A stretch of DNA of 44,970 nucleotides, from IMG/VR virus record IMGVR_UViG_3300033141_001796, positions 1 through 44,970 of that record; one strand, written 5' to 3'. Position numbers and translations under genes: made by a program. Below, piece after piece: positions 1 to 44,970 of this stretch (its first letter is position 1; each line of letters opens with the position of its first letter). Under the pieces are notes generated by a model. It made no database searches. It saw only the letters and a program-made list of their open reading frames with translations, and was not told the DNA's origin. Source of the stretch: a virus.

Positions 1-114
1 AACATAATATCAGACCGTCATAAGAACATTTCTGATAGAGACGAACTTGCAACTGAAATGTTTCGCGATGGCTGTCTTCTCGGCGCAGCAATCTTTGTTG
101 AGTTACTCGCGACC
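1..114. repeat. Terminal direct repeat, left copy
   Basis: Bases 1-114 are identical to bases 44857-44970, and both copies lie in frame inside the same gene. This is the signature of a circular or circularly permuted molecule assembled with an overlap. The unique genome length is therefore 44,856 bp. The overlap alone cannot tell a true terminal repeat from an assembly overlap. Confidence 0.95.
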
Positions 115-213
115 GGTCAAGTCGACTTAAAAATCATTTCTCGTGTGAAGGAGAAAAAGAATGACAGCAAAAGTAAAGAGAAACCCAAAACAGATAGGAA
201 CTTGTTTATTTGA
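1..213 (+). CDS. Small conserved-type phage protein, 3' part (gene starts at 44752)
   Basis: This is the downstream part of a 105-residue gene whose ATG is at 44752 and which reads through the circular join without a frame change. The first base of the window is the first base of codon 36. The stop is TGA at 211-213. The whole product is soluble-looking: acidic-to-neutral first 80 residues with an alanine-rich stretch (VDDCVNHYNNIISDRH then GCLLGAAIFVELLATG), and a lysine-rich tail. It overlaps the next gene by 53 bp, an unusually long overlap for this phage. The function is not recognised. Confidence 0.7.
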   Translation, partial: NIISDRHKNISDRDELATEMFRDGCLLGAAIFVELLATGQVDLKIISRVKEKKNDSKSKEKPKTDRNLFI

Positions 214-937
214 CTGTATTCCGCAAGTAGGTCCTTGTCCAATGAACTGCAATCAGTGCTTTTACAATAGGCCAAATGCATTCTACACAGACATCAAAAA
301 GCCACTGATACCAGAGCCGGAGACAGTAGGCGATGGCATAGTTAGAATGAACTCAGGAAACGACAGTTGCGTAGAGAAACAAAAAGTCATTGAAGTTGCT
401 AAGCGATACAAAAACTACTTCTTCAATACATCAGTAAACGATATGGACTTCCCAGGGCCTGTTGTGCTAACTGTTAATCGCGATGAGGAAAGAACACCTG
501 CAAGGTCGCCAGTTATCTACGCTCCAGCAGCTGTTCCAGCTAACCTAATGTTCGTTAGAGTTAAAGTATCAATCTCTAACATAGGCGAAATTGTTCCGCT
601 CATTTGCGACTGGACACTTGCAGACGTGCCAGTTGTATTAACGTTTATGAGATATTATGAAGTCGATGCGCTTAACTATACAATCAAGCATCGAAATCCA
701 TTTGTAGCAACGAGCGTAAATGGCGATTTCTATGAGTTCAAAAAGCATATCATTAACCGCTATTGGTGTATGACTAAAGAAACAAAACTAGCAATAATGA
801 AACTATTAGAAGTAGGCAAGAACCGCTTACTTACCACCTGCGGAACTCCTGACTCCAGTTTATGCAAAGACTGTAGAAACTGTGAGCACTATTATTGGAT
901 AACCAAGCGGCGAATGTATGATAAGGAGGAACTGTGA
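161..937 (+). CDS. Radical SAM-like iron-sulfur protein
   Basis: A 258-residue protein. Residues 26-33 read CPMNCNQC, the CX3CX2C motif that holds the 4Fe-4S cluster of radical S-adenosylmethionine enzymes, and it is followed by the usual aromatic residue (FYN). Two further cysteines (C15, C19) precede it. A second cysteine set near the end (C227, C235, C238, C241) could hold an auxiliary cluster or zinc. The blocks FPGPVVLTVN, NLMFVRVKV and VPVVLTFMRYY resemble, from memory, the barrel strands of a radical SAM family found in many uncultured phages. The substrate is unknown. The start is supported by AAGGAG at 148-153. It is co-oriented with, and followed directly by, the DUF3987-like gene. 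Confidence 0.75.
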   Translation: MTAKVKRNPKQIGTCLFDCIPQVGPCPMNCNQCFYNRPNAFYTDIKKPLIPEPETVGDGIVRMNSGNDSCVEKQKVIEVAKRYKNYFFNTSVNDMDFPGPVVLTVNRDEERTPARSPVIYAPAAVPANLMFVRVKVSISNIGEIVPLICDWTLADVPVVLTFMRYYEVDALNYTIKHRNPFVATSVNGDFYEFKKHIINRYWCMTKETKLAIMKLLEVGKNRLLTTCGTPDSSLCKDCRNCEHYYWITKRRMYDKEEL

Positions 938-2125
938 TTGGCGAGGCGATTAAAGTCAGGCGTATTAGAAGCATTTTGCAAGTTTACAGAAGACACAGAA
1001 GTCCCAGCGGTCTTTGCTGTTTGGGCTGGCATAGCAACTATCTCTGCTGCACTCGGACGAGACTGCTTCGTTGACCAAGGATACTTTACGGTTTATCCTA
1101 ACTTATACATCGTTTTAGTTTCCGGCTCCGCTCGGTGTAGAAAGTCCACTGCAATTGGAATAGCTGAGGATTTTATTAAGCAAATAAAGCCAGCTGTTAA
1201 TATACTCAGCCAAAAAATGACGCCAGAAGGGCTAATAGGCGCGTTGAGCGGAATGATTGGTGAAATCGGAGCTACTGAGGTTGTGCCAGCTGCTATTGGC
1301 ATCGCAATAGTCGATGAGCTATCAACACTAATTGACAAAAACGCATTTAAGAGCGGAATGATTTCGATATTGACTAAGCTCTACGATGCAAAAGACTTTG
1401 AGTATTTAACAAGAGGACGAGGCCGCGAGATGGTCAAAAATCCTTGCTTGTCAATTTTAGGTGGCTCAACTTTACACTGGATAAAAGAGTCTGTGCCAAT
1501 TGTATCTATTGGCGGCGGCTTCACTTCGCGTGTAGTCTTTATCTACAAAGACAAAAGAGAAAAACTAGTCCCCTGGCCGGTCTTATCTGCTGAAAACAAG
1601 CAACGCAAAGAAGATATAATACACGACTTGAACGAGGTTGCAAAGTTGCGAGGCCCGTTCGCTGTGGACAATCAAGCACTTGAAATGTATAAAAGTGAGT
1701 ATGTTAACTTTTACGAAAATAGTCATCTAATGGACAACCAAGACTTAAGCGGCTATGCTAATCGAAGGCATCATATATTACTGAAACTATCAATGATTAT
1801 TTCTGCATCGAGACGAGACAGTAGAGTAATAACAGCCAGTGATATGTCGACTTCTGTGAGCATAATGCAACGAGCTGAGGAGTCCATGCCGCTGATACTA
1901 CGAGCGCTAACAGCTAAAGAAATCGGCGATACGTTTGATGAGATACTTAAGTTTCTAATAAGACATAAAGTAGCTAACAAGAGCGATTTAATTAGACACT
2001 TTAGACACAAGCTGTCGTCGCAGCAGATTGACGAAGTTATGCGGACATTAGAAGAAGGTGGATACATAGCTGTAGAGGTGGACGGAAGAGCTATAAGATA
2101 TGTGCTAACTAGCACATATAGATAA
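938..2125 (+). CDS. DUF3987-like P-loop ATPase (helicase/primase-type)
   Basis: A 395-residue protein starting at a TTG codon (938-940), seven bases after AAGGAGGA at 923-930. Residues 63-71 (GSARCRKST) form a Walker A motif and IAIVDELSTLI around D126-E127 a Walker B motif. The order (an N-terminal DTEVPAVFAVWAGIATISAALGR helical segment, P-loop, Walker B) matches the DUF3987/YfjI-like helicase family, which often supplies primase-helicase functions in phages. The last 75 residues look like a winged helix (IGDTFDEILKFLI to GGYIAVEVDG). No DnaB-type helicase or primase was recognised elsewhere, so this is the best replicative helicase candidate. It is the last gene of the rightward operon. 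Confidence 0.7.
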   Translation: MARRLKSGVLEAFCKFTEDTEVPAVFAVWAGIATISAALGRDCFVDQGYFTVYPNLYIVLVSGSARCRKSTAIGIAEDFIKQIKPAVNILSQKMTPEGLIGALSGMIGEIGATEVVPAAIGIAIVDELSTLIDKNAFKSGMISILTKLYDAKDFEYLTRGRGREMVKNPCLSILGGSTLHWIKESVPIVSIGGGFTSRVVFIYKDKREKLVPWPVLSAENKQRKEDIIHDLNEVAKLRGPFAVDNQALEMYKSEYVNFYENSHLMDNQDLSGYANRRHHILLKLSMIISASRRDSRVITASDMSTSVSIMQRAEESMPLILRALTAKEIGDTFDEILKFLIRHKVANKSDLIRHFRHKLSSQQIDEVMRTLEEGGYIAVEVDGRAIRYVLTSTYR

Positions 2126-2160
2126 AATGGAGAGTAGCCAGATGTAACTAGCTACCCTCC
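2121..2160 (-). terminator. Candidate terminator of the leftward virion operon
   Basis: Read on the minus strand, GGAGGGTAGC (2160-2151) pairs with GCTACTCTCC (2138-2129), ten positions with one mismatch and a 12-nt loop, followed by ATTTTATC. It lies just past the stop of the 1256-codon gene and abuts the end of the converging DUF3987-like gene. Confidence 0.5.
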
Positions 2161-2191
2161 TGACGAAAGCAGCAGAGCTCTTATCGGCGGA

Positions 2192-2212
2192 CTTGTTCAA
2201 CGTTTGAACAAG
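2192..2212. repeat. Dispersed palindrome TTGTTCAA-N3-TTGAACAA, copy 1
   Basis: A perfect 9-bp inverted repeat (CTTGTTCAA and TTGAACAAG) around CGT, in the short gap between the converging operons. Five related copies lie at 12587-12609, 20659-20677, 28205-28221, 29659-29675 and 34225-34247. Candidate protein-binding site; see the findings on the palindrome family and the ParB-methyltransferase. Confidence 0.7.
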
Positions 2213-30610: not shown

Positions 30611-30661
30611 TGCCTTAATATGGTGTCCGTAAAGCGGATTGAAGAACGCCAAGAGCTAAAA

Positions 30662-31150: not shown

Positions 31151-31155
31151 ACAAA

Positions 31156-31464
31156 ATGAAAGAGCTAAAAATCTTCCTTCCAACTGTCCATCTAACCGAT
31201 GGCATAACTCACCTAGCGCCAGAGCTATGCGACAAAATGTTCGACTACATAAACGCCGGCGCAATCGTTACAGTAGTTAATCCGCCTGGCTCAGTTGTCA
31301 ACGGATTTGTGCGAAACGTGGCTGAAGTCTTGTTTCCTTGGAGGAAACAAACTGATTTAGTATCACCAGACTTCCTTCACGGTATCGATAGTCCGTTAAT
31401 AAAAAATTACTTATCAACCCTTAAGAAAAGACGAAAGGAGCTAAAAGATGCGGACAGTGACTAA
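31156..31464 (+). CDS. Protein of 102 aa, unknown
   Basis: AAGGAAAC precedes the ATG at 31156. Sequence MKELKIFLPTVHLTDGITHL followed by a hydrophobic alpha/beta region (CDKMFDYINAGAIVTVVNPPGSVVNGFVRNVAEVLFPW) and a basic tail (KNYLSTLKKRRKELKDADSD). It overlaps the next gene by 17 bp. Confidence 0.6.
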   Translation: MKELKIFLPTVHLTDGITHLAPELCDKMFDYINAGAIVTVVNPPGSVVNGFVRNVAEVLFPWRKQTDLVSPDFLHGIDSPLIKNYLSTLKKRRKELKDADSD

Positions 31465-31789
31465 AGCCGTCCACCACAAAGGCCGCCACGTAGGCGACGT
31501 CGATGTGCCAGTCTACGAAACTGTAGATGAACTCATCGCAGCGGAGTCTGAGCAAACCATTCTGAATATGTTCAACAAGCAGAATGCAATCAGACTTCAA
31601 GCCAACGAGCGGGCTAAGCATACTGAAGGGCGAATGGGCAAGCAGAAACGCAGAGAGCTTGCGTTCAATCTGCTATCTGCCGATGAAATCGCTCAATTTA
31701 GCGGCAATATGGCTGGACTGCAAGAGTATCTCGATAGTGAAGAGATGCAGCGACGAGTGGCAGAGTCTCAAGCTGAAGCAGCAGTCTAA
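31448..31789 (+). CDS. Protein of 113 aa with AQFxGNMAGLxxY motif
   Basis: Start supported by AAAGGAG. VDVPVYETVDELIAAESEQTILNMFNKQ is a small alpha/beta start; the C-terminal half contains DEIAQFSGNMAGLQEYLDSEEMQRRVAE. The motif AQF(A/S)GNMAGL(R/Q)xY is shared with the first rightward gene (27624-28043), which suggests paralogous C-terminal domains. Small proteins of this kind are abundant in uncultured phages; function unknown. Confidence 0.6.
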   Translation: MRTVTKAVHHKGRHVGDVDVPVYETVDELIAAESEQTILNMFNKQNAIRLQANERAKHTEGRMGKQKRRELAFNLLSADEIAQFSGNMAGLQEYLDSEEMQRRVAESQAEAAV

Positions 31790-31795
31790 TGGCAG

Positions 31796-31826
31796 TCGGG
31801 CAGCCGGTGCAATTCCGGCTGTTCGA
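31796..31826 (+). terminator. Hairpin with U-rich tail, possible terminator or attenuator
   Basis: TCGGGCAGCCGG (31796-31807) pairs with CCGGCTGTTCGA (31815-31826) in a 12-bp stem that includes two G-T pairs, loop TGCAATT; a T-rich stretch (CTTATTCTTATT) follows. It starts six bases after the stop of the 113-residue gene. Confidence 0.5.
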
Positions 31827-31838
31827 CTTATTCTTATT

Positions 31839-31884
31839 ACTTGTGCAGCTGCAATAGCCTTGCAACATCCTTAGCTGCACAAGT
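31839..31884 (+). other. Hairpin directly in front of a start codon
   Basis: ACTTGTGCAGCT (31839-31850) pairs perfectly over 12 bp with AGCTGCACAAGT (31873-31884). A small GCAA-N5-TTGC hairpin lies inside its loop. The next ATG (31889) follows four bases after the stem. Confidence 0.6.
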
Positions 31885-31888
31885 CGTT

Positions 31889-32098
31889 ATGATAAACTGG
31901 TTCAAATTATCCAAACTTGATAAATTGTCGCTGGTTACGCAGCTATCGCTATCTCGTGAGGCATTAGCACAACAAGCTAAAACTCGGCGAGTTAAGCGAG
32001 CAACCAAGCGGAAAACTAAAAAGATGAAGTTCAAATCAAAGGAGCTGGAGGAACTGTTCTACTCTATGCCAAAAGAGTTCAGAAGCCTTAACTGGTAA
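31889..32098 (+). CDS. Small basic protein, 69 aa (start uncertain)
   Basis: Best start is ATG 31889, but there is no Shine-Dalgarno, and a stable hairpin ends four bases before it. The sequence is basic in the middle (QQAKTRRVKRATKRKTKKMKFKSKELEEL). An internal ATG at 32024 could give a 24-residue version. It lies 15 bp before a gene with a strong ribosome-binding site. Function unknown. Confidence 0.4.
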   Translation: MINWFKLSKLDKLSLVTQLSLSREALAQQAKTRRVKRATKRKTKKMKFKSKELEELFYSMPKEFRSLNW

Positions 32099-32113
32099 CG
32101 GGAGGTTACTAAA

Positions 32114-32551
32114 ATGCCATTAGATAACTCCGCTAAGCTCAAAATGTGCGAAACCTGTGCAAGGTCTTTGATATCTAAATACAGAAATCCTCGCATCGAG
32201 CACGATGAGCTAGTCAACATCGGATTTGCTGGGATAGCTAGCAATGAGCGGAGCCTAGCGTTCTCGCAAGCTTATCTGCACATGCTAAACTTTATCAATC
32301 GCAAGCTGCCGCAATGTAAACCAGACGTTAGATTTAGATACTATCGCAACGAGCCTGAACTATGGCAGCTAATCGACCTAAAAGATGCAGTAGCAAAGCT
32401 TACACCATCAGAGCGACAACTAATCAAAGAGTATTTCTACGACGGACTAACTTACGAACAAATGGCTATTCTACATAACAAAAAGTGCAGAGGCTCAATT
32501 GGCTGGAGTATCAATCGCATCTTGCGAAAGCTTGAGCGGTTTCTTCGATAA
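32114..32551 (+). CDS. Sigma-70-like protein (regions 2 and 4 type)
   Basis: A 145-residue protein with GGGAGG before ATG 32114. The N-terminal part (LISKYRNPRIEHDELVNIGFAGI) resembles sigma region 2, and residues 92-145 (LTPSERQLIKEYFYDGLTYEQMAILHNKKCRGSIGWSINRILRKLERFL) form a sigma region 4-type helix-turn-helix. Such small sigma-like proteins can redirect host RNA polymerase or act as DNA-binding regulators. It is followed by the phosphoesterase gene. Confidence 0.6.
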   Translation: MPLDNSAKLKMCETCARSLISKYRNPRIEHDELVNIGFAGIASNERSLAFSQAYLHMLNFINRKLPQCKPDVRFRYYRNEPELWQLIDLKDAVAKLTPSERQLIKEYFYDGLTYEQMAILHNKKCRGSIGWSINRILRKLERFLR

Positions 32552-32554
32552 ACT

Positions 32555-33481
32555 ATGAAAGCAATTGATTACCTAGTCAACTGCACAAGTCGCTCGGACA
32601 GATTTGAGTTGTTTCCAATCGGCGACCCGCACATCGGCAAGCGGAACTGTGCAGAAAAAGCATTAAGTAAACAAGTGAACGAAATCTTGCGGCGAGCTAA
32701 AATGCCGCATCGACAGGTAGCAGTAATTTTTGGAGGCGACATAGTAAACGCAATCGACATAACTGACATCAGACGCTTCAACATCGATGACCTAGCTGAC
32801 TGGTTTGTCGCTTGCGACGGCGAGACTACACGAGAGAGACTAGGCGATATGGTTAATCAGGAAGTCAATAGAGCAGTAGAAATTTTTAAGCCGCTAGCGC
32901 CTTACACAATAGGTGCAATCTATGGCAATCATGAGAAAGAGCTCAAAAAGCGACATAGCATAGACGCTCATCGAGAGTTTTGCAGGCGGATGGACATAAA
33001 CGACTTAACTAACGAAGCCTGCATTAGACTTCGATTCAGGCGAAAAATGCACTCAAGCAACAAAGGTCCTACTAGCACAGTCAATCTATACATCAGGCAC
33101 GGCTACGGCTCAGGCAGAACTGCTGGTGCCGAGCCTAACAAACTAGCACGAATGCAAGCTGAGTGGGAATGGGCTGACATTTGCTTCAGTGGACACACTC
33201 ATACATTTCAGATTATGCCGCCAAAGCCAGTTCTCTATTTACCAAACAAAGGAAAACTTCCGCCTCAACTACTCCAACGCTATCGCTTCGCAGCTAACTG
33301 GGGCTGCTGGCTGTTCAGCCATCTTACAGGTCCCGGCAACTACGAAAGCGACAAATGCTACGCTGCTAAGCCGATGATGACTATAAAGGCAGTCATCTGG
33401 CCTTTCTGGTCAACTCGGACAACTAACAACTATCAAATAAACATGCCTAAAATCGAAATTAGGCAATATCCAATACTCTAA
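32555..33481 (+). CDS. Calcineurin-like metallophosphoesterase
   Basis: A 308-residue protein with all the metal-binding blocks of the superfamily: GDPHIG (D24, H26), GGDIVN (D62), GNHE (N125, H126), and a GHTH motif (H214, H216), with an extra RHG near 181. It would be a phosphodiesterase or phosphatase with two metal ions; in phages such enzymes act on nucleic acids or nucleotides. The ribosome-binding site is weak. The neighbouring holin and spanin genes do not explain it. Confidence 0.85.
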   Translation: MKAIDYLVNCTSRSDRFELFPIGDPHIGKRNCAEKALSKQVNEILRRAKMPHRQVAVIFGGDIVNAIDITDIRRFNIDDLADWFVACDGETTRERLGDMVNQEVNRAVEIFKPLAPYTIGAIYGNHEKELKKRHSIDAHREFCRRMDINDLTNEACIRLRFRRKMHSSNKGPTSTVNLYIRHGYGSGRTAGAEPNKLARMQAEWEWADICFSGHTHTFQIMPPKPVLYLPNKGKLPPQLLQRYRFAANWGCWLFSHLTGPGNYESDKCYAAKPMMTIKAVIWPFWSTRTTNNYQINMPKIEIRQYPIL

Positions 33482-33495
33482 ATAAGGAGAAGCAA

Positions 33496-33696
33496 ATGAA
33501 AAAAATTATCGAAGCACTTAAAGGCAAAAAGACATACATAGTAGCTGCCATTGTGCTAGCCATCTGGTTCGCCGAGTCTGTCCTAGGCATCGATGTGCCA
33601 GGTGCGGAAGTTAGCAATCCGCTCGAGTGGATAATGGCTGCACTTGGGCTAGCTACAACGAGAGCAGCAATCGCAAAGGCGACTGACGCTAATTGA
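33496..33696 (+). CDS. Holin-like membrane protein
   Basis: A 66-residue protein preceded by AAGGAG. Short basic start (MKKIIEALKGKKTY), one clear membrane segment (IVAAIVLAIWFAESVLGIDV) and a second hydrophobic stretch with WIMAALGLATTRAAIAKAT. The layout matches small phage holins that open the inner membrane at lysis. Spanin genes follow shortly. Confidence 0.65.
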   Translation: MKKIIEALKGKKTYIVAAIVLAIWFAESVLGIDVPGAEVSNPLEWIMAALGLATTRAAIAKATDAN

Positions 33697-33729
33697 CGCA
33701 ACTACTTGACCTTTATCACTTTCTCCTCT

Positions 33730-33828
33730 GAGGCCAGCAGACGGCGGAGTTTACCTGCACGCAGCCACCATCCTCGCTGCTGCAGTCCACACTTCTTGGC
33801 GAAGTAATCAACTCCGCCAGCTGGTCTT
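33730..33828 (+). ncRNA. Candidate structured RNA with three-way junction
   Basis: Intergenic. Stem 1 pairs GAGGCCAG and GGCGGAGTT (33730-33751) with AACTCCGCC and CTGGTCTT (33810-33828). Inside, stem 2 pairs CTGCA-GCAGC (33755-33765) with GCTGC-TGCAG (33776-33785), with one bulged C, and stem 3 pairs ACTTC (33791-33795) with GAAGT (33801-33805). Three nested stems of this quality in a 160-bp gap are hard to get by chance. There is no open frame of note. Function unknown. Confidence 0.5.
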
Positions 33829-33858
33829 AACAACTAAGCGAAAGAAGGAGCGACATAA

Positions 33859-34137
33859 ATGACAAAACTAATTTTGTTAGCAATCACTGGAAGCATAACT
33901 TTAGCAGCAATTATCATTAAGACATTCTACAGCAACGCTGCTAAAGCGAAAAAGCTACAACAAGACATCTGGCAAAAAGAAAAGGACTTAAACTATGTTA
34001 CTGAAAAAATGGCTCTTGCCACTCGCACTCGGAACTATTCTGTTCGCAATAAACTTAACGAACATCGGCTGCAACTCATCAACGAGCTGGATAGACTCAG
34101 AAAGCAACTGGAGTTCTACAAACGACATTCTGCTTGA
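33859..34137 (+). CDS. Rz-like inner-membrane spanin
   Basis: A 92-residue protein with AAGGAG upstream. N-terminal membrane anchor (LILLAITGSITLAAIIIKTFY) followed by a charged coiled coil (AKKLQQDIWQKEKDLNYVTEKMALATRTRNYSVRNKLNEHRLQLINELDRLRKQLEF), the classic i-spanin plan. It carries an out-of-frame lipoprotein gene within its second half. Together they would fuse the inner and outer membranes in the last step of lysis. Confidence 0.65.
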   Translation: MTKLILLAITGSITLAAIIIKTFYSNAAKAKKLQQDIWQKEKDLNYVTEKMALATRTRNYSVRNKLNEHRLQLINELDRLRKQLEFYKRHSA

Positions 34138-34225
34138 CAACTACGAAGATGCAAATAGCGTTTACGTAGCAGTTCCATTTAGCAGATACGTTCATCTACT
34201 TAAATGCGAGGACAAATGTAAATAG
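33995..34225 (+). CDS. Rz1-like outer-membrane spanin lipoprotein, embedded start
   Basis: Starts inside the Rz-like gene in another frame (ATG 33995) and runs 88 bp past it. The signal peptide MLLKKWLLPLALGTILFAIN is followed by a lipobox-like LTNIGC, then a polar tail (NSSTSWIDSESNWSSTND...). Embedded or overlapping Rz1 genes of this form are well known. At 76 residues it is typical in length. No strong Shine-Dalgarno is visible. Confidence 0.6.
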   Translation: MLLKKWLLPLALGTILFAINLTNIGCNSSTSWIDSESNWSSTNDILLDNYEDANSVYVAVPFSRYVHLLKCEDKCK

Positions 34226-34247
34226 CTTGTTCAATGTTTGAACAAGC
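34225..34247. repeat. Dispersed palindrome, copy 6 (longest stem)
   Basis: GCTTGTTCAA-TGT-TTGAACAAGC, a perfect 10-bp inverted repeat, the longest of the six copies. Overlaps the last base of the Rz1-like stop. Confidence 0.75.
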
Positions 34248-34271
34248 CAATCTCGAGAAAGGAGAAATAAA

Positions 34272-34616
34272 ATGACAGACATAGAGTTCGATGAGATTTT
34301 TGAGGACTTCGTTGACAAAATGCATCACGTATTAAGCTCTCGAGCTGAGCTATACGCTAGCGACGACCGGCTTAACAACTTCAAAAAGGCAGCTACTGTA
34401 TTAAACAGACATCCGCTTGAAGTGCTAACTACGCTAGTCTCAAAACACTTTTGCGCTCTTTGCGACGAGATAGACCGAATAGTATATGAAGACAAAGAGC
34501 CAGATATGACGCTGATTAACAGCTTAGCAGTCGACATTGCTAACTATTGCGGGCCTCTTGTAATCGCACTAGTTAAAGAGACGAAGGAGAAAAAAGACGA
34601 TGATACGAGTAGATAA
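34272..34616 (+). CDS. Small acidic phage protein, 114 aa
   Basis: Strong AAAGGAG start signal. The segment LSSRAELYASDDRLNNFKKAATVLNRHPLEVLTTLVSKHFCALCDEI, followed by VDIANYCGPLVIALVKE, resembles, from memory, a widespread but unnamed family of phage proteins that often sit near nucleotide and recombination genes. No biochemical activity can be given. It overlaps the nuclease gene by 17 bp. Confidence 0.6.
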   Translation: MTDIEFDEIFEDFVDKMHHVLSSRAELYASDDRLNNFKKAATVLNRHPLEVLTTLVSKHFCALCDEIDRIVYEDKEPDMTLINSLAVDIANYCGPLVIALVKETKEKKDDDTSR

Positions 34617-35508
34617 GCACTTTACTATCGACTATGTCGATGCCAGCGGATTGAGCTGCTTTGCAAGATGTCCAGCGAGATACTTGTTCCAACGCTTAAT
34701 GGGACTTGAGCTTCCTGACAAAAGCACAATAGCTGTCGACTACGGAACTGACATTCATAGAGCATTGCCGCACTGCTACAAAGGTGCAGATAACATACAG
34801 ACAGCAGTTGAGCAGTTTACAGCATCTTGGAGTTCTCGTGAGCACGGCGAGTCCGATGAAAAGCGAACAACTAACCACGCAGTTGCATCGCTCAGTCAAT
34901 TCGCCGCAACTCACTCACCAGACAAGTGTCCGTATAGGATACTTAACTTTCCAATAAAAGCGCCTACAGCTACAATAATTAGTCCTAACGAGATACCATT
35001 TCTGGTCGATATTGGAGGTGATTTGCCGGCAGCTGGGCGGATTGACGTAGCTGTCGAATGGAAAACTACAAATGACCTATGGGTGCTTGATTATAAAACG
35101 TCAAGCGAAATCTCCAGCAGATACTTCAAGAATTTCGAAGGCGCTCCGCAAACTTGTCTCTACACATTAGCGCTTAGTCAAATAGCTAATCGACGTGCTA
35201 CTGGAATGATTATTGAGGCAATTCGAGTTAGCAAATGTAATGTGGAAACTCAAATGCAAATGATTTACGTAAAGGACGAAGAGATTACTGCGTTCATCCG
35301 ATTTGCTAATCGAATATCGAAAGCAATTATTGCTTGCAACGAGTCGAAGAGTTGGCCGAAGCAGTTGACCGGCTGTTCTCCTTATTCAATGTTCGGCCAG
35401 CCCGGCAGACAATGCGAGTATAAAATGATTTGCGAGCAGTCCGATTGGACTTCAGTCTTGCGGTTCTACAAGCAAACAGAACCGTTTCATCCGTTCAAAG
35501 TGCGTTAA
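34600..35508 (+). CDS. Cas4/RecB-like PD-(D/E)XK exonuclease with likely iron-sulfur cluster
   Basis: A 302-residue nuclease. N-terminal LSCFARCPARYLF (C20, C24) and GTDIHRAL (H53) precede the core RIDVAVEW (D149) and WVLDYKTSS (D164, K166), the PD-(D/E)XK active site. Three late cysteines (C259, C272, C278) with an N-terminal one make the four-cysteine pattern of Cas4- and AddB-type iron-sulfur nucleases. It is followed by a Sak4-like ATPase and a DUF669-like protein, so it probably makes single-stranded ends for phage recombination. AAGGAG precedes the start at 34600. Confidence 0.8.
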   Translation: MIRVDKHFTIDYVDASGLSCFARCPARYLFQRLMGLELPDKSTIAVDYGTDIHRALPHCYKGADNIQTAVEQFTASWSSREHGESDEKRTTNHAVASLSQFAATHSPDKCPYRILNFPIKAPTATIISPNEIPFLVDIGGDLPAAGRIDVAVEWKTTNDLWVLDYKTSSEISSRYFKNFEGAPQTCLYTLALSQIANRRATGMIIEAIRVSKCNVETQMQMIYVKDEEITAFIRFANRISKAIIACNESKSWPKQLTGCSPYSMFGQPGRQCEYKMICEQSDWTSVLRFYKQTEPFHPFKVR

Positions 35509-35525
35509 AGAGAAAGGAGAGTAAA

Positions 35526-35750
35526 ATGAGCAAAACACGCAAAAGACCTACAGTCTTACAAAGAAAAGCTCGCAAAGAGAACTGGGCGCTCTGGCAACTA
35601 GCCGGTATGATTCCAGTTCTTCGAACAATGGCTGCACGGACTGAAATAAGCGAGCTTAAGGCACCGTGTGAAACTACAGCAATGATGCTTGAGATGATAG
35701 CTCAAAGAATTAAAGTTCGTCAATTAGCACGAAGGAAGCAAAAAAGATGA
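35526..35750 (+). CDS. Small basic protein, 74 aa
   Basis: ATG 35526 chosen because AAAGGAG precedes it (the frame is open back to 35430 inside the nuclease gene). Basic ends (MSKTRKRPTVLQRKARKENW; KVRQLARRKQKR) around a helical middle. Overlaps the next start by 4 bp. Function unknown. Confidence 0.6.
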   Translation: MSKTRKRPTVLQRKARKENWALWQLAGMIPVLRTMAARTEISELKAPCETTAMMLEMIAQRIKVRQLARRKQKR

Positions 35751-35989
35751 AACTCTGGTTAACTAAAAGCTCATACACAGGCGAGTATGTCGTCTGGAAA
35801 ACTAAACCTGAAGCTCTGTTCGGAAACGACTATGCAGATGTAATGTATGTAGATGGTGAAGTTGTAGCTCGTGGGCTCTATGCATTCGACCAGTTGTTTC
35901 CTAAACTTTGCTCAAACATTCAACCAGCAGGAAGGACAACAATTGAGCTAACTGAAACCGACAATGGATACTTATTACGAAAGGCATAA
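35747..35989 (+). CDS. Small protein, 80 aa, unknown
   Basis: Coupled (ATGA) to the previous gene, GAAGGA upstream. Beta-rich small domain (MKLWLTKSSYTGEYVVWKTK ... DVMYVDGEVVARGLYAFDQLFPKLC). Stops two bases before the intein-bearing gene. Confidence 0.55.
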   Translation: MKLWLTKSSYTGEYVVWKTKPEALFGNDYADVMYVDGEVVARGLYAFDQLFPKLCSNIQPAGRTTIELTETDNGYLLRKA

Positions 35990-35991
35990 AG

Positions 35992-37836
35992 ATGAAAGCA
36001 GCGGACTTAAAAACTCAAAACAAGCCGCCTAACCTGCTATTTTACGGGCCTGCAGGTAGCGGCAAAGGACAACCTCTTGACGCCATAATTCTAACGCCAA
36101 GTGGGCCTACTACAATGGGAGCAATTAGTGTCGGACAAGTTGTGTTAACACCAACTGGTTCAGCTATTGTAGAGGGTGTTTATCCTCTTGGTATAAAGGA
36201 TATCTATGAGATATCTTTTAGTGATGGTAGTAAGACAGAGTGCACATTAGACCACCTGTGGAACGTATTTTACTACTCACAGTCAAGAGATGTAGGCAAA
36301 GCAGGAAGAAAAAAGGGAGTTACACATAAGAAGCATAGGGTAGTGTTAAGTAAAACAATGAAGCTAGATAATATAATGAAGGCATTAAGTCGAGCCACTA
36401 GGAAGAATAAGTATTGGATACCTCAAACTGAGCCTGTAGAGTTCACATGTAAGCCTAATTTATTGCCTCTTGACCCTTATGTCTTGGGAGTATTACTAGG
36501 CGATGGATGTCTCTGCAAAAATACACCATCATTTACGTCGATAGATGGAGAGATAATGTGCGAGGTAGAAAAGAGGCTAGGCCCTGAATACCCAATAACC
36601 TATTATAAATCTACAGACAGAAATGCTTGGAGTTGCAGCATACCAAAGTTAAAGCCTATAATAGAAAAGCTTGGGCTGCAAGACACACACTCACAGAATA
36701 AGTTCGTCCCAAGCGGATACTTGTTTGCTCCGTCAAGTGTAAGACTATCTTTGCTTCAAGGACTATTTGACACTGATGGCTCTGTTGACAAACAGGGGCG
36801 CGTAGAGTTCTACACTACGTCTGCACAATTGGCGATAGCAGTGCGCTTCTTGATAGAGTCGCTAGGAGGAACGTGCAAGGTTCGATACAGAACAGGTAAA
36901 CTGTATGGAGTTGGTAAGTCCAGAGTATACACTTGCACACCGTCATTAAAGAGCCAATCCCAGCTGTTTCTGCTAAAGCGTAAAAGGGACAGAGTGGTTG
37001 AGCGAACTAAATACTTTCCAAAGCGTATCATAACTGGCATTACTTACTCAAGAAAAGCTGAGTGTCAATGTATAAAAGTAAGCGGCAGTAATGGCTTGTA
37101 TTTAACCAACAATTTCATAGTTACTCACAATACTGCCTTAGTTAGCCAAGCATACAAAGGCTACATGTTCGACTTCGATGACGGAATGCGGACAGCATTG
37201 ACGCTCAACGACAAGTTCACTAAATATCGCCAATCGCTGACATTTGACACCTACGTAGATGAAAACCCGCTTCAGCCGACTGCATATATGAACGCTAAAA
37301 AGAAGCTATTAGAAATCGGCAAAGCAATCTCATCTAACCAATGGCAGTTTGACGCTTGCATAATAGACTCCTTAACTGGCCTCTGCCGAGCCGCACAACT
37401 GCACGTAATGGCTTGCTCAGGCAATGCATTAGCACAGCCAAAAATACAGCACTACGGAATGATAGTTAACGAAGTTGAGTCTATCCTAACTATCCTTCGC
37501 TCGTTCAAAGTTTTGACGCTTGTTACTGCTCACGAGATGCTCGTTGAAACTGATACAGGAACGCTCATAAGAATAATGTCGGCAACTAGACCTCACGGAA
37601 TGAACAAACTGCCTTGGTTGTTTGATGAGGTGCTTTATACAAAAGTCATCCGGCGAGGTCAAGGCAAGTCGGACTATATCGTCAGCGGCCGCTCGACTAG
37701 CGCAATCGTAACTAGGACTCGGAGTGGCATAACTGACGACATTGTGCATAACGAGGAAGGCCTTCAACTAATTTTAGAGAAGGCCGGCTATAAATATAAA
37801 CCCTTTTATGGAGGCGAACAGTATGCCAATAGTTAA
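35992..37836 (+). CDS. Sak4-like RecA-fold ATPase, interrupted by an intein
   Basis: A 614-residue precursor. Residues 1-25 and 381-614 join into a 259-residue protein with Walker A GPAGSGKT rebuilt across the splice point (K25/T381), Walker B FDACIIDSLTG, and FKVLTLVTAHE. This matches Sak4/AAA_24-type ATPases that help phage single-strand annealing and recombination, and it lies between a Cas4-like nuclease and a DUF669-like protein, the usual neighbourhood. Residues 26-380 are an intein (see separate entry). The mature ATPase should form only after protein splicing. AAAGGC is the only start signal. Confidence 0.85.
   Translation: MKAADLKTQNKPPNLLFYGPAGSGKGQPLDAIILTPSGPTTMGAISVGQVVLTPTGSAIVEGVYPLGIKDIYEISFSDGSKTECTLDHLWNVFYYSQSRDVGKAGRKKGVTHKKHRVVLSKTMKLDNIMKALSRATRKNKYWIPQTEPVEFTCKPNLLPLDPYVLGVLLGDGCLCKNTPSFTSIDGEIMCEVEKRLGPEYPITYYKSTDRNAWSCSIPKLKPIIEKLGLQDTHSQNKFVPSGYLFAPSSVRLSLLQGLFDTDGSVDKQGRVEFYTTSAQLAIAVRFLIESLGGTCKVRYRTGKLYGVGKSRVYTCTPSLKSQSQLFLLKRKRDRVVERTKYFPKRIITGITYSRKAECQCIKVSGSNGLYLTNNFIVTHNTALVSQAYKGYMFDFDDGMRTALTLNDKFTKYRQSLTFDTYVDENPLQPTAYMNAKKKLLEIGKAISSNQWQFDACIIDSLTGLCRAAQLHVMACSGNALAQPKIQHYGMIVNEVESILTILRSFKVLTLVTAHEMLVETDTGTLIRIMSATRPHGMNKLPWLFDEVLYTKVIRRGQGKSDYIVSGRSTSAIVTRTRSGITDDIVHNEEGLQLILEKAGYKYKPFYGGEQYANS
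36067..37131 (+). mobile_element. Intein with LAGLIDADG homing endonuclease, class 3 features
   Basis: 355 residues inserted exactly after the Walker A lysine. It starts with Gly (GQPLDAIILTPSG), not Cys or Ser, and ends VTHN before Thr+1. Block B has T85-x-x-H88 with W90; the C-terminal block has C360 (ECQCIKV) and T378 before H379-N380. The Trp/Cys/Thr trio with a non-nucleophilic first residue is the mark of class 3 inteins. Two endonuclease motifs, LGVLLGDG (D171) and LLQGLFDTDG (D262), are intact. The nucleotide sequence is written in a different codon style from its host gene (more AGG, ATA, AAG), a sign of transfer. Confidence 0.88.
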
Positions 37837-38257
37837 TGTAGATGTTGCTGACGAAAGTAAATTTCAGCAAAAGAGCTTCAAGCTGTTGCCAAAAGGCAAC
37901 TATGTCTTTGAGCTCGCAAAGAACCTGGTTGTTGAGCAAGCAAAGACTTCAAACAATCGGAAGGTAGATGTGGAAGCTGTCTGTATGGACGAAGGTGAGT
38001 TCAAAGGGACTAGAGTATGGACGACTATTGCGCTCACTCCAAAAAGCGACTGGCGGTTAGTCCACTTGGCTTTAGCCTGCGGAACTCAAACAAAAGATGA
38101 GATTAAAGCAGCAGGCGGAGTTGACCTATCGCTCTTGACAGCCGGCTGCCGCTTCGAAGCATCCGTCGATGTTACACCTGAGCAGACCGCTCCAGATGGC
38201 ACTACCTACCGAGCGAAGAATACAATAACTAGGTTTCTCTTTGAGAGCGATGAGTAG
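37823..38257 (+). CDS. DUF669-like / single-strand DNA-binding-type protein
   Basis: A 144-residue protein from ATG 37823, eight bases after GGAGG (the frame's earlier ATG at 37808 contains that ribosome-binding site and is unlikely). Overlaps the ATPase stop by 14 bp. The pattern LPKGNYVFELAKNLVVEQ...VEAVCMDEGEFKGTRVWTTIAL followed by LVHLALACGT is that of DUF669 proteins, which sit with Sak4-type ATPases and probably bind single-stranded DNA. Confidence 0.7.
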   Translation: MPIVNVDVADESKFQQKSFKLLPKGNYVFELAKNLVVEQAKTSNNRKVDVEAVCMDEGEFKGTRVWTTIALTPKSDWRLVHLALACGTQTKDEIKAAGGVDLSLLTAGCRFEASVDVTPEQTAPDGTTYRAKNTITRFLFESDE

Positions 38258-38258
38258 A

Positions 38259-38330
38259 ATGACGAAAGTAGCAACGGACAACTTAGCAATTGACAGCTCA
38301 GCAATTGACAACTCAGCAATTGACAGCTAA
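38259..38330 (+). CDS. Possible 23-aa repeat peptide
   Basis: A tiny open frame right after the DUF669-like stop: MTKVATDNLAIDSSAIDNSA then IDS. It is made mostly of a 15-bp tandem repeat (38282-38326) that stays in frame, giving (L/S)AID(S/N)S units. No good Shine-Dalgarno is seen. It may be a real small peptide or a repeat that happens to be open. Confidence 0.3.
   Translation: MTKVATDNLAIDSSAIDNSAIDS
38282..38326. repeat. Three tandem 15-bp repeats
   Basis: Units CTTAGCAATTGACAG, CTCAGCAATTGACAA and CTCAGCAATTGACAG. Each carries TTGACA, the -35 promoter consensus, but no matching -10 element is found at the right distance. Confidence 0.8.
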
Positions 38331-38351
38331 CCCTTTCTACTCTCCTTCTCT

Positions 38352-38436
38352 CGCCGCCCTGCGGAGGTATGAATGGCAGCAGTTTCTCTGGTGGATACCT
38401 TTAGCGAGGATGATGGGAGCCTCGCACGTATCGGCG
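38352..38436 (+). ncRNA. Candidate structured intergenic RNA, closed by a GC stem
   Basis: CGCCG (38352-38356) pairs with CGGCG (38432-38436). Enclosed are AGGTAT (38365-38370) with ATACCT (38395-38400), and GCGAGG (38404-38409) with CCTCGC (38420-38425). The ribosome-binding site of the next gene follows within 15 bases. No coding frame of note. Confidence 0.4.
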
Positions 38437-38459
38437 GTATTTATTGAAAGGACATAACT

Positions 38460-38801
38460 ATGACTATGAACAACGCAAGGATAAAATGCTTCGGTGGATA
38501 CATACCGATTAGAGACATTGAAGCAATAGATACTAAACAAAAAATATGGAAAGGCAAAAGAATAGTCGAAATCGGAACTCCGACTGATGTGCTTGAAGAG
38601 CTATTTTTCAGTAGAGACTATAGTTCAGACAGTGAAATAGACAAGCTGCTCTGTGAAAAGCACATTAAAGACAACAGCATACTTGGCTGTGAGTTCTGGC
38701 TAATACCAAAGGAAAAACTATTGTTCGGCTACGACCCGCCGTCAACTATCTTAAAACCAGACATTAGACCATCAAGCAGCCGACCGAGGATACAAATATG
38801 A
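38460..38801 (+). CDS. Protein of 113 aa, unknown
   Basis: GAAAGGA precedes the ATG. Mixed alpha/beta sequence (MTMNNARIKCFGGYIPIRDI, EELFFSRDYSSDSEIDKLLCE, CEFWLIPKEKLLFGYDPPST). Its TGA overlaps the ATG of the next tiny gene. The family is not recognised. Confidence 0.6.
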   Translation: MTMNNARIKCFGGYIPIRDIEAIDTKQKIWKGKRIVEIGTPTDVLEELFFSRDYSSDSEIDKLLCEKHIKDNSILGCEFWLIPKEKLLFGYDPPSTILKPDIRPSSSRPRIQI

Positions 38802-38869
38802 TAGACATTAAAGATGTTTTGCTGATAGCAATACTAATAACTATATTACTCTGGACACGGAAACGATGA
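38798..38869 (+). CDS. 23-aa single-span membrane peptide
   Basis: MIDIKDVLLIAILITILLWT then RKR: one hydrophobic helix with a positive end. It overlaps the upstream stop and the downstream start, each by ATGA, so it is translationally coupled on both sides, which argues that it is real despite its size. Orientation would be C-terminus inside by the positive-inside rule. Confidence 0.5.
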   Translation: MIDIKDVLLIAILITILLWTRKR

Positions 38870-40173
38870 AGATAAAAATAAAGTCAATAGAAGTAAAGCA
38901 AAAAGAAGGCAAGCGTGCTCGAGGCGACTACGGCGACTTGACGAGGCTGGCCAAGTCGATTAAAGAACACGGACTTATGCATCCAATTGTAGTTGACAAA
39001 GCGACTAGCGGAGACAAAGAATACATTCTCATCGCTGGCGAGCGGCGATTGCGAGCTGCAGTTCTCATCGGACTATCTGAAATAGAAGCAACTTTAGTTT
39101 CGCAGACAACTGCATTAGAGCGCAAGGCAATGGAGCTCGAAGAGAACGTGATAAGGAAAGACTTAACTTGGCCAGAGGAAGTTGAGTGCTTAAGACAGCT
39201 GCACGAATTGCGGCAGCAAATGTATGGAGCTGCGACTCGTGCTAAAGATAACGTTGGCTGGGGAGCTCGAGAGACCGCTGAGGCAGTTGGACGCTCGCTT
39301 GGTTCAGTTGGCGGCGATTTGCGATTGGCAACTGTTCTTAAAGAGCGGCCTGAATTGCTTAAAAAAGTCCGCAAGCTACCAAAGGTCGCTGCTATGAAGA
39401 TAGTGCAGCGAATGGTTGAAGCTGAAGAGCTCAAGCGCCAGATGGACAAAAAGGAGTTAGTAATCACTGCAGACTTGCGGCTAGGCGACTGCTGCGATTT
39501 AATCGATGAGATAGAAGACCATTCAGTAGATTGTTTACTAACCGACCCGCCTTTTGGCAATCCTGGCATCGTTAAGACTGGCCAGACGCACGTATCATCG
39601 TATAACGTTACTGAGTCCAACGTAAGCACACTTGAGACTATGTTTCCAGTTTATAAAGTGCTTATTCCTAAGTTAGCAAAGAAACTGAAAATCGGAGCTC
39701 ACGTTTATATTTTCTGTGGAATGGGCGAAGCTTACTGTTTTCTAATGAAAACACTAGCTGAAAACGGTTTCCTAATGGATGACCTTCCGCTCATCTGGTA
39801 TAAGAAACGCTCATCGGTTATCGGCAAGGACTTTCACTATCTTTCGAGTTATCAAGCATGCTTATTCGGACATAATCAAGAGCGTAAAAGACCGCTAAAA
39901 AAGCCAATAAACAATGTAATTATTGCAGCTACAATAGCTCCGCAGATGAAAGTGCATCCGTTACAGATAACTGATGCAGTCTTGCGGCCGCTAATAGAAA
40001 ACAGCACAGTTCCTGGCGAGCTCGTGCTTGATTGTTTTGCTGGCAGCGGAGCGGTGTTAAAAACTGCAGAGCAGTTGCAGCGTCGAGCTATCGGCTTTGA
40101 GCTCGACGAAGGAAATTATTTACGAGCAATAAAATGGTTAAGTGAGACGAAAGGAGAGCAAAATGAAACTTGA
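38866..40173 (+). CDS. ParB-like domain fused to DNA methyltransferase
   Basis: A 435-residue fusion. Residues 1-105 carry the ParB motifs: LMHPIVV, GERRLRAA (59-65), and EENVIRKDL (92-100). Residues 130-160 (WGARETAEAVGRSLGSVGGDLRLA) look like a helix-turn-helix of the ParB/KorB type. Residues 200-435 are a beta-class-order methyltransferase with catalytic DPPF (227-230) and, near the end, the SAM-binding DCFAGSGAV (389-397). It should methylate adenine N6 or cytosine N4 and may be guided by the ParB part. A ParB-type domain on phage methylases is known; the match of its intact ParB motifs with a palindrome family in this genome is notable. Confidence 0.85.
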   Translation: MKIKIKSIEVKQKEGKRARGDYGDLTRLAKSIKEHGLMHPIVVDKATSGDKEYILIAGERRLRAAVLIGLSEIEATLVSQTTALERKAMELEENVIRKDLTWPEEVECLRQLHELRQQMYGAATRAKDNVGWGARETAEAVGRSLGSVGGDLRLATVLKERPELLKKVRKLPKVAAMKIVQRMVEAEELKRQMDKKELVITADLRLGDCCDLIDEIEDHSVDCLLTDPPFGNPGIVKTGQTHVSSYNVTESNVSTLETMFPVYKVLIPKLAKKLKIGAHVYIFCGMGEAYCFLMKTLAENGFLMDDLPLIWYKKRSSVIGKDFHYLSSYQACLFGHNQERKRPLKKPINNVIIAATIAPQMKVHPLQITDAVLRPLIENSTVPGELVLDCFAGSGAVLKTAEQLQRRAIGFELDEGNYLRAIKWLSETKGEQNET

Positions 40174-40339
40174 CACACGCACGTTACTGGAAGTGCAATA
40201 TCAAGTTGCACGGAAACTATTCAACGGACTTGCTGACAAAGGCGGTCATCTGTCTCAATGGATAGACGGCTATCGAGCCGCATCAGAAGTTGTTAGGAAA
40301 GAACTGCGTAGACTTTACGTAAAATCCAAAGGAGCCTAA
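40163..40339 (+). CDS. Small basic protein, 58 aa
   Basis: ATG 40163 is preferred because AAAGGAG lies just before it (the frame is open back to 40142 within the methyltransferase gene). Basic helix-rich sequence (QVARKLFNGLADKGGHLSQWIDGYRAASEVVRKELRRLYVKSKGA). Function unknown; it separates the methyltransferase from the DNA polymerase genes. Confidence 0.6.
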   Translation: MKLDTRTLLEVQYQVARKLFNGLADKGGHLSQWIDGYRAASEVVRKELRRLYVKSKGA

Positions 40340-40340
40340 A

Positions 40341-41441
40341 ATGCTAGTTCAAGACACAGGTCCTCGAGACGCAAAGATAATGCTAGTCGGTGAGGCTCCT
40401 GGTGAAGAGGAAGAACGTATAGGGAAGCCGTTCGTTGGAGCAGCTGGCAAGATGCTTAGGCAAATGCTCAGCCACGTAGGGATTGATTATAACAGCTGCT
40501 ATGTAACTAACGTTATGAACGTCCGGCCTCCCGGGAATAATTTTAGGTATTTCTACAACGGCAAGCTTCCGAGCCGCGAGCTTGAACGTGGATGGCAGCA
40601 GCTGCAAAACAAAGTTGCTTCAATACGTCCAGATGTAACTATCTTGCTCGGCAACGAGCCGCTAAAAGCTCTTTGTAACAAAAGCGGAATTAGCAACTGG
40701 CGTGGCACTTGGCTATCGTTCAGAGGAATAAATGTTTTGCCAACTTACCATCCATCCTATGTTTTGCGTCAATATGGCGACCATCCAATTGTCGAGCTGG
40801 ACTTAATGAAAGCTGCTACACAGAAGCCAGCTGCTGAGCCAACATTTATCCTGCAGCCAACGCTCAAACAAACAATTGACTGGCTATCAACTGCGCTCGA
40901 TAGCGATAGTCGCATTGGCTTCGACATTGAAACTATAGGCAAGCATGTTAGGTGCTTAGGATTATCGAGCAATCGGTCAACTATCTGTATTCCGTTTATT
41001 AAGTTTCCATCATCGGATTTAGTCAGTCCGTCTAGCTCAACGATTGTTCAAGTGTCTGGTATCTCTGGCCACTCGAGCTCATACTGGTCAGCTAGTGAAG
41101 AAATTGCTATCATCGATGCAATAGACAAACTGTTCAGAAGCGGCATTGAAATAGTTGGACAAAATAGCATTAGCTTCGATGCTCCGTTGTTAGCTGAAGA
41201 GTTCGGACTGACAATTGCTAATCACTACATAGACACAATGCACTTATGGCACTGTTTGTATCCTGAGTTGCCAATGAGCTTATCGTTTTTATGCTCTGTG
41301 TTAACTAACTATCCGAACTACTGGACAGAGATGGACTCTACTAATGACAAAAGTCTGTGGCGATACAACTGCTTCGATGCGTTAGTTACACTAGAGATTA
41401 GCTACAAGCTCGAGAAAGAGGCGAAGGAGACTAAAGTATGA
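40341..41441 (+). CDS. Uracil-DNA-glycosylase-like domain fused to a 3'-5' proofreading exonuclease
   Basis: A 366-residue fusion. Residues 17-40 (GEAPGEEEERIGKPFVGAAGKMLR) and 134-143 (PTYHPSYVLR) are the two active-site blocks of family 4-type uracil-DNA glycosylases; the N-terminal cysteines of the iron-sulfur form are absent. Residues 190-360 are a DnaQ-like exonuclease with FDIET (D195, E197), GQNSISFD (D280) and YNCFD (Y342, D346), the three Exo motifs of family A polymerases. The polymerase domain is in the next gene, with a 4-bp ATGA overlap. Together they look like a polymerase split in two, with a uracil-sensing part at the front. AAAGGAG precedes the start. Confidence 0.8.
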   Translation: MLVQDTGPRDAKIMLVGEAPGEEEERIGKPFVGAAGKMLRQMLSHVGIDYNSCYVTNVMNVRPPGNNFRYFYNGKLPSRELERGWQQLQNKVASIRPDVTILLGNEPLKALCNKSGISNWRGTWLSFRGINVLPTYHPSYVLRQYGDHPIVELDLMKAATQKPAAEPTFILQPTLKQTIDWLSTALDSDSRIGFDIETIGKHVRCLGLSSNRSTICIPFIKFPSSDLVSPSSSTIVQVSGISGHSSSYWSASEEIAIIDAIDKLFRSGIEIVGQNSISFDAPLLAEEFGLTIANHYIDTMHLWHCLYPELPMSLSFLCSVLTNYPNYWTEMDSTNDKSLWRYNCFDALVTLEISYKLEKEAKETKV

Positions 41442-44391: not shown

Positions 44392-44395
44392 ATAA

Positions 44396-44686
44396 ATGTG
44401 CTGTGCTATAAAATGTGTTCGTTGTGGAGCTGTTAGTTATAATGAATCTGGCAAAACCCCTTTAACTTGCAATGCTTGTTATGAGAAACTCCAAAATCGA
44501 GAGGCTAAACTTGAAGTTGAAACTAAGCGGCTTTTGACCGAACACGAAATGGATAGGAAACATATTGAGTATGTCGAACAGATAAACGCTAATCTTGCAG
44601 AACAAAATAAGCAACTCCAAGTTGAGATAGAACGTCTGCAAAAGCGATTGACTGTGTTAGAAGAGCAAGCCCTGAAAGGAGAGTAA
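44396..44686 (+). CDS. Zinc-ribbon plus coiled-coil small protein
   Basis: A 96-residue protein with CVRCG and CNAC (a four-cysteine ribbon, residues 7-32) followed by a long charged coiled coil (LEVETKRLLTEHEMDRKHIEYVEQINANLAEQNKQLQVEIERLQKRLTVLEEQ). Start supported by AAAGAGGTG. Function unknown. Confidence 0.6.
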   Translation: MCCAIKCVRCGAVSYNESGKTPLTCNACYEKLQNREAKLEVETKRLLTEHEMDRKHIEYVEQINANLAEQNKQLQVEIERLQKRLTVLEEQALKGE

Positions 44687-44689
44687 AAA

Positions 44690-44725
44690 ATGAAAAAGCT
44701 GGATTGGTTTGCTAAAAAGAAATAA
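44690..44725 (+). CDS. Possible 11-aa peptide
   Basis: MKKLDWFAKKK, placed exactly behind a perfect AAAGGAG signal, with stop at 44723-44725. It may be a small peptide, a leader that couples the next gene, or chance. Confidence 0.25.
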   Translation: MKKLDWFAKKK

Positions 44726-44751
44726 ACAAACTATAGCTAAGGAGCAACTAA

Positions 44752-44970
44752 ATGTTCAAAGGAAACGATGACTTTACTGTTCACAGAGCGGCCATTGACT
44801 GTGCTGCAATAGTATTTGCTGGAGCCGGCGTTGATGACTGCGTGAATCACTACAATAACATAATATCAGACCGTCATAAGAACATTTCTGATAGAGACGA
44901 ACTTGCAACTGAAATGTTTCGCGATGGCTGTCTTCTCGGCGCAGCAATCTTTGTTGAGTTACTCGCGACC
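44752..44970 (+). CDS. Small phage protein, 5' part (continues at base 115 across the join)
   Basis: The ATG at 44752 has AAGGAG ten bases ahead. 73 codons lie before the end of the window and the frame continues at bases 115-213, for 105 residues in total. The N-terminus MFKGNDDFTVHRAAIDCAAI is followed by an alanine- and glycine-rich hydrophobic part. Function unknown. Confidence 0.7.
   Translation, partial: MFKGNDDFTVHRAAIDCAAIVFAGAGVDDCVNHYNNIISDRHKNISDRDELATEMFRDGCLLGAAIFVELLAT
44857..44970. repeat. Terminal direct repeat, right copy
   Basis: Identical to bases 1-114, which shows that the sequence closes on itself. Confidence 0.95.

What the first reader, a model, noticed from the sequence alone, without database searches (positions are those of the whole stretch)
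1..44970. The whole genome appears to lack the tetramer GATC
I read every line for GATC, including across block borders, and found none. At this base composition more than 150 copies would be expected, and GAT and ATC are both very frequent. Even the intein, with a different codon style, has none. Other four-base palindromes (TCGA, AGCT, CTAG, GTAC, CCGG, GGCC) do occur, so the effect is specific. Near-total loss of one palindrome is the mark of strong selection, for example against a GATC-specific restriction enzyme (Sau3AI/MboI/DpnII class) or a Dam/MutH-linked process in the host.
Basis: seen in the sequence. Interest (0 to 1): 0.88.

Follow-up and report, generated by a model that had tools for sequence, protein, structure and literature searches.

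The report
Phage genome purged of restriction sites
This complete uncultured phage genome has lost every copy of the DNA word GATC, and nearly every GTAC, most likely because its hosts' restriction enzymes cut at such words; this is a known phage strategy, seen here in an unusually clean form.

Summary
Confirmed: GATC occurs 0 times in 44,970 bp (162 expected by a maximal-order Markov model; 114 ± 9 expected in genes if synonymous codons are shuffled). Every Asp codon before a C is GAC (69 of 69), while elsewhere GAT is commoner.

Not confirmed: that the effect is specific to GATC. GTAC is almost eliminated too (4 of 92), and CATG, GTSAC, GAWTC and GGWCC are strongly depleted.

The window is a complete phage from a lineage of roughly 45 kb phages. 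On the capsid tree, strong GATC avoidance changed at least five times. Five GATC-bearing relatives hold 278 GATC sites in homologous codons; the window keeps none. Other relatives have purged CTAG, CGCG or GCGC instead. This fits selection by changing host restriction-modification repertoires better than mismatch repair or mutation bias.

The host is not established. One phage gene points weakly to anaerobic Planctomycetota, some of which carry complete GATC restriction operons.

An extra: CGCG is missing only from the early-gene block (27.2-40.6 kb), where the single copy lies in a recently inserted intein. This suggests a mosaic restriction history.

Verdict: real and strong, but a new member of a known kind (restriction-site avoidance).

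The parts
1..44970 (.). Complete phage genome without a single GATC; GTAC nearly eliminated (4 sites: 10816, 13829, 23398, 28848); CATG, GTSAC, GAWTC and GGWCC depleted
   Evidence: Counts and Markov expectation; synonymous shuffle; homologous-site test
1..114 (.). Left copy of the 114-base terminal direct repeat (right copy 44857-44970): contig closes on itself
   Evidence: the repeat finder
27218..40574 (.). Early-gene block without CGCG; its only copy (36799) lies in the intein
   Evidence: CGCG positions; max-gap P about 1.6e-7 with the intein removed
36067..37128 (+). Intein inside the Sak4-like ATPase gene (35992-37836), absent from a near-identical contig (empty site)
   Evidence: blastn of L024 (IMGVR_UViG_3300033149_001551) to the window; LAGLIDADG_3 match
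38866..40173 (+). ParB-N / N6-N4 DNA methyltransferase fusion, core gene of the lineage irrespective of GATC status
   Evidence: Pfam PF02195 and PF01555; relatives
16775..17893 (-). DegT-type aminotransferase, the gene used for the weak host lead
   Evidence: NCBIfam; best cellular relatives mainly Planctomycetota; tree
20685..21752 (-). Major capsid protein, used to find relatives and build the tree
   Evidence: PHROG 9953; relatives; tree

Best explanation
The genome has been purged of the recognition sites of several orthodox Type II restriction enzymes met in its past and present hosts. Each unmodified GATC is a cleavage point for a GATC enzyme (DpnII/MboI/Sau3AI kind), so phages without it leave more offspring; synonymous or neutral changes removed all copies and new ones keep being weeded out. 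GTAC has gone almost as far, and CATG, GTSAC, GAWTC and GGWCC part of the way. Relatives show other sets, matching other host repertoires. Shown: the absence, the recoding, the co-depletion and the turnover among relatives. Inferred: that restriction endonucleases are the agent, and which host carries them.
For: GATC 0 of 162 and 0 of 114 under synonymous shuffling; Asp before C is GAC 69 of 69. Other Type II-like palindromes co-depleted. Of 278 GATC sites in homologous codons of five GATC-bearing relatives none is kept; 0 of 86 with unchanged amino acids, against 27-46% for five control palindromes. Purged sets differ among relatives; strong GATC avoidance needs at least 5 changes on the capsid tree. 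No Dam-type methyltransferase in any relative and no integrase among 30 proteins scanned with PHROGs, so a non-temperate phage is likely. Site elimination is documented for non-temperate dsDNA phages and orthodox Type II enzymes (PMC6286503). GATC restriction operons exist in the weakly indicated host group, some of whose chromosomes avoid GATC.
Against: No host is established: no CRISPR spacer match, no prophage or host contig, and the DegT lead is not nested in Planctomycetota. No enzyme for GTAC or CATG was looked for in a proven host. DpnII-family enzymes are rare in the sampled class (8 of 298).
Confidence: 0.86

Rival explanations
1. Selection through Dam/MutH-type mismatch repair: losing GATC frees the phage from methyl-directed repair (higher mutation rate) or from MutH nicking, as discussed for phiX174.
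For: phiX174 also lacks GATC, and restoring 20 sites lowered its mutation rate eightfold (PMC5014478). MutH-family genes exist in some Phycisphaerae.
Against: Does not explain loss of GTAC (4/92), CATG (34/157), GTSAC or GAWTC, nor the loss of CTAG, CGCG or GCGC in relatives. [quoted passage not shown]
Confidence: 0.05
2. The phage merely mirrors an oligonucleotide signature of its host, which itself avoids GATC for whatever reason.
For: Several Phycisphaerae genomes under-represent GATC (4/40, 30/162, 33/148) and CATG.
Against: Those genomes still keep 10-50% of GATC and have normal GTAC, while the phage has none and 4%; the strongest host signature there, CTAG (2/53, 1/45), is only mild in the phage (110/197). 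The host is not proven.
Confidence: 0.04
3. The phage's own ParB-methyltransferase drives the loss: GATC modified by it is harmful, for instance cut by a DpnI-like methyl-directed enzyme.
For: A methyltransferase with a DPPF motif is a core gene. A DpnI gene lies beside a Dam-family methyltransferase in one Phycisphaerae genome.
Against: The gene is in GATC avoiders (G000, G012; G029 reduced) and in GATC-normal relatives (G021, G027, G032) alike, so it does not predict avoidance, and it would not explain GTAC or CATG.
Confidence: 0.03
4. Artefact: library digestion with a GATC cutter, or chance or composition.
For: None found.
Against: Poisson and shuffle expectations exclude chance. Homologous codons are recoded, not missing. 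A near-identical contig in assembly 3300033149 also has 0/71, while another contig of the same assembly (G016) has 24/30 GATC.
Confidence: 0.01

Closest known systems
Restriction-site avoidance by non-temperate dsDNA phages (Rusinov et al. 2018, PMC6286503)
   Same: Near-complete elimination (observed/expected under 0.1) of short palindromes recognised by orthodox Type II enzymes, genome-wide, in a phage without a recognised integrase.
   Different: Here the host enzymes are not known; at least two words are eliminated and several more depleted at once; the purged set changes between relatives, and one word (CGCG) is missing from only one module.
phiX174, also devoid of GATC (PMC5014478)
   Same: Zero GATC against a clear expectation (0 of about 20).
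   Different: Small ssDNA phage of a Dam/MutH host, where mismatch repair was invoked. Here the dsDNA genome is eight times larger and other palindromes are lost too.
DpnII/MboI/Sau3AI class GATC restriction-modification systems
   Same: Recognise GATC (established knowledge); complete operons with a Dam-family methyltransferase are present in Phycisphaerae genomes.
   Different: This is the proposed selective agent in the host, not part of the phage; no direct link to this phage was shown.

Membership tests
Restriction-site avoidance (Type II) | Recognition word eliminated or strongly under-represented against a Markov expectation | tested here: met
   GATC 0/162, GTAC 4/92; synonymous shuffle
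Restriction-site avoidance (Type II) | Affects palindromes of the Type II kind, not words in general | tested here: met
   The lowest tetranucleotides are all palindromes (GATC, GTAC, CATG, GCGC, CTAG, CGCG); GTSAC, GAWTC, GGWCC among 5-mers
Restriction-site avoidance (Type II) | Sites removed by sequence change while the protein is kept | tested here: met
   0 of 86 GATC sites kept where amino acids are unchanged; controls mostly 27-46%
Restriction-site avoidance (Type II) | Non-temperate dsDNA phage | tested here: inconclusive
   No integrase or repressor among 30 proteins scanned; many early ORFs are unknown
Restriction-site avoidance (Type II) | Host carries, or carried, the matching restriction enzyme | tested here: inconclusive
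   Host unknown; GATC operons found in a weakly indicated host group
Dam/MutH-linked GATC avoidance (phiX174 type) | Only the Dam/MutH site GATC is avoided | tested here: not met
   GTAC, CATG, GTSAC and GAWTC are depleted too
Dam/MutH-linked GATC avoidance (phiX174 type) | Host uses Dam/MutH methyl-directed mismatch repair | not testable with these tools
   Host unknown

The most novel reading that the evidence does not exclude
The CGCG-free early block (27.2-40.6 kb, ending just after the ParB-methyltransferase gene) is not a recombination relic but functional: the DNA that enters or is exposed first must be free of a host site, and an early phage product (perhaps the ParB-methyltransferase) then shields the remainder, which keeps its sites.
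Probability: 0.1. Interest if true: 0.6.

Novelty: new member of a known kind. Interest (0 to 1): 0.36.

Why it matters
The list of purged words in an uncultured phage reads like a record of the restriction enzymes its hosts have used. In this lineage the record changes between relatives and, for CGCG, even between modules of one genome. Such profiles could help to link metagenomic phages to hosts and to trace recombination between phages, but the principle is established.

Tried and rejected
Chance, composition, codon bias and library artefact: rejected by Markov, synonymous-shuffle and homologous-site tests and by an independent contig. A phage-encoded Dam (PF02086) that would make avoidance unnecessary in GATC-bearing relatives: none in 34 records, though many are fragments. 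The ParB-methyltransferase as cause: present regardless of GATC status. Host by capsid profile in GTDB genomes: nothing. Host by CRISPR spacers in Phycisphaerae: weak DNA matches only; the 13 matches of the first search were checked and none lay in an array, and the second search returned mainly aminotransferase and tail-gene matches that were not checked for arrays; window 40001-44970 was not searched. An early guess that the source habitats are hot springs was dropped: metagenome 3300035698, source of several relatives, is an Antarctic lake co-assembly (PMC8542988). PolA scan of viral contigs: no confirmed relative. Planctomycetota as host is kept only as a weak lead, because the phage DegT clade is not nested inside it. 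Import of the CGCG-free block from a G012-like phage is plausible, but gene identities are mixed. The DUF6996/DUF6997 proteins were not folded, because they came through the genome search and the structure tool does not list such loci as allowed.

Full report
Observation. A direct count finds no GATC in the 44,970-base window; a maximal-order Markov model predicts 162 and base composition alone 170. To exclude protein sequence and codon bias, synonymous codons were shuffled among 46 ORFs: 113.9 ± 8.6 GATC expected, lowest of 300 shuffles 92, observed 0. The recoding is plain: an aspartate codon followed by C is always GAC (69 of 69), while elsewhere GAT is commoner (393 against 318). Intergenic stretches also have none where 8.7 are expected; the intein expectation is too low (1.8) to tell.

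The claim of specificity fails. GTSAC (5/40), GAWTC (21/55) and GGWCC (13/40) are also low, and synonymous shuffles agree. AGCT, TCGA, TGCA, GGCC and ACGT are not depleted. The genome carries a set of purged palindromes of the kind recognised by orthodox Type II enzymes, with GATC the most complete.

What the genome is. The window is a whole virus record with a 114-base terminal direct repeat. It has a leftward structural block (terminase, portal-like, capsid, tail-spike and glycan genes) and a rightward early block (sigma-like factor, metallophosphatase, PD-(D/E)XK nuclease, Sak4-like ATPase with an intein, ParB-methyltransferase fusion, uracil-DNA glycosylase/exonuclease, PolA), with a DUF3987 primase/helicase. 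No integrase was seen among the 30 proteins scanned with PHROGs. Apart from one near-identical contig, relatives are metagenomic contigs 41-70% identical in capsid protein; three other near-complete ones are 45.0-46.0 kb. One source metagenome (3300035698) is an Antarctic lake co-assembly (PMC8542988). No capsid relative was found in the annotated phage collection.

Relatives are the strongest test. Across 34 contigs the purged set differs. GATC is gone or nearly gone in G000, G001, G002, G003, G004, G007, G008, G012, G013, G017, G018, G026 and G030; reduced in G011, G025, G028 and G029; near normal in G005, G006, G009, G010, G021, G027 and G032. CTAG is gone or nearly gone in G002, G032, G033, G014, G019 and G031; CGCG is gone and GAWTC low in G012; GCGC is low in G032. 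The GTAC loss is nearly private to this phage. Some of these contigs are short, so single entries are weak. On a capsid-protein tree the strong GATC avoidance needs at least five changes, all forced by well-supported branches. In codons homologous between the window and five GATC-bearing relatives (G005, G006, G009, G021, G027), none of 278 GATC sites is kept. Among the 86 where the amino acids are unchanged 0 are kept, whereas five control palindromes are kept at 27-46% (CCGG is an exception at 3%). Avoidance is thus gained and lost as the lineage diverges, as expected if hosts with different restriction enzymes are visited.

Host side. The host could not be established. A capsid-profile scan of GTDB genomes gave nothing. 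A DegT-type aminotransferase carried by the phage and four relatives has Planctomycetota proteins as its best cellular relatives (nine of the top ten of 15 confirmed loci; the tenth is Lentisphaerota), but in a tree the phage proteins form their own clade beside, not within, those. A sigma-like gene suggests a bacterial host. In the class of one of these genomes (Phycisphaerae), 8 of 298 genomes have a DpnII-family enzyme, 39 of 298 a Dam-family methyltransferase above cut-off and 5 of 198 a MutH/Sau3AI-family gene. Operons pair a Dam-family methyltransferase with DpnII (L112, L113), a MutH/Sau3AI-like nuclease (L094, L145, L152) or a DUF6996/DUF6997 protein that matches a Type II enzyme model of PADLOC (L093, L151, L154-L156). 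Several of these genomes under-represent GATC in their own sampled DNA (4/40, 30/162, 33/148), but not GTAC. GATC restriction is a live theme in that group, yet the link to this phage stays a lead. Matches of window DNA to Phycisphaerae genomes were weak, and the 13 checked lay in no CRISPR array.

Mechanism. Shown: absence, recoding, co-depletion of other palindromes, turnover among relatives. Inferred from established knowledge: cleavage of unmodified sites by host Type II enzymes selects against each site. Rusinov et al. (PMC6286503) report that 7.1% of Type II recognition sites are eliminated from the phage genomes concerned, and that elimination is commoner in non-temperate phages. Mismatch repair, discussed for phiX174, which also lacks GATC (PMC5014478), cannot explain the other purged words. 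Mirroring of host composition cannot explain GTAC or the completeness. The phage's own ParB-methyltransferase is in avoiders and non-avoiders alike, and no Dam-type (PF02086) methyltransferase is found in any relative.

Unexpected: CGCG is near normal over most of the genome (51 of 63 expected in 2.2-27.5 kb) but is missing from 27.2 to 40.6 kb, the early block up to just past the ParB-methyltransferase; the one exception lies in the intein. The 12.3-kb gap (intein removed) has a probability of about 1.6e-7 under uniform placement; the next most uneven palindrome of 42 has 0.007. A near-identical contig lacks the intein and has no CGCG in the part of this block it covers. The simplest reading is a mosaic: the early module spent time under CGCG restriction (relative G012 has 0/33 CGCG genome-wide), the late module did not. 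Early genes lean towards G012/G029 and late genes towards G005/G007, but not uniformly. The alternative, that first-entering DNA must be site-free, is not excluded, but no such regional pattern recurs in the five relatives tested.

Verdict.

Noticed in passing
window 27218-40574: CGCG is absent from the early-gene block only, with its sole copy inside the intein; uniform-placement probability about 1.6e-7.
   Followed up: partly
window 36067-37128: Intein in the Sak4-like ATPase is missing from a near-identical contig (L024), so the insertion varies within the population.
   Followed up: partly
L093, L151, L154, L155, L156: DUF6996/DUF6997 proteins sit directly downstream of Dam-family methyltransferases in Phycisphaerae and match a PADLOC Type II enzyme model; they are candidate GATC nucleases with no paper in the held library.
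   Followed up: partly
L157:1456-3411: A DpnI-family (methyl-directed) nuclease gene lies next to a Dam-family methyltransferase, a pairing that should be self-harmful if both are active.
   Followed up: no
window 13571-15562: Tail-region protein with a LamG-like stretch gives short DNA-level matches to several Phycisphaerae genomes, a further weak hint at the host.
   Followed up: no
window 161-937: 258-aa protein with a CxxxCxxC motif resembling radical SAM proteins but no Pfam, PHROG or NCBIfam match.
   Followed up: no
   Followed up: partly
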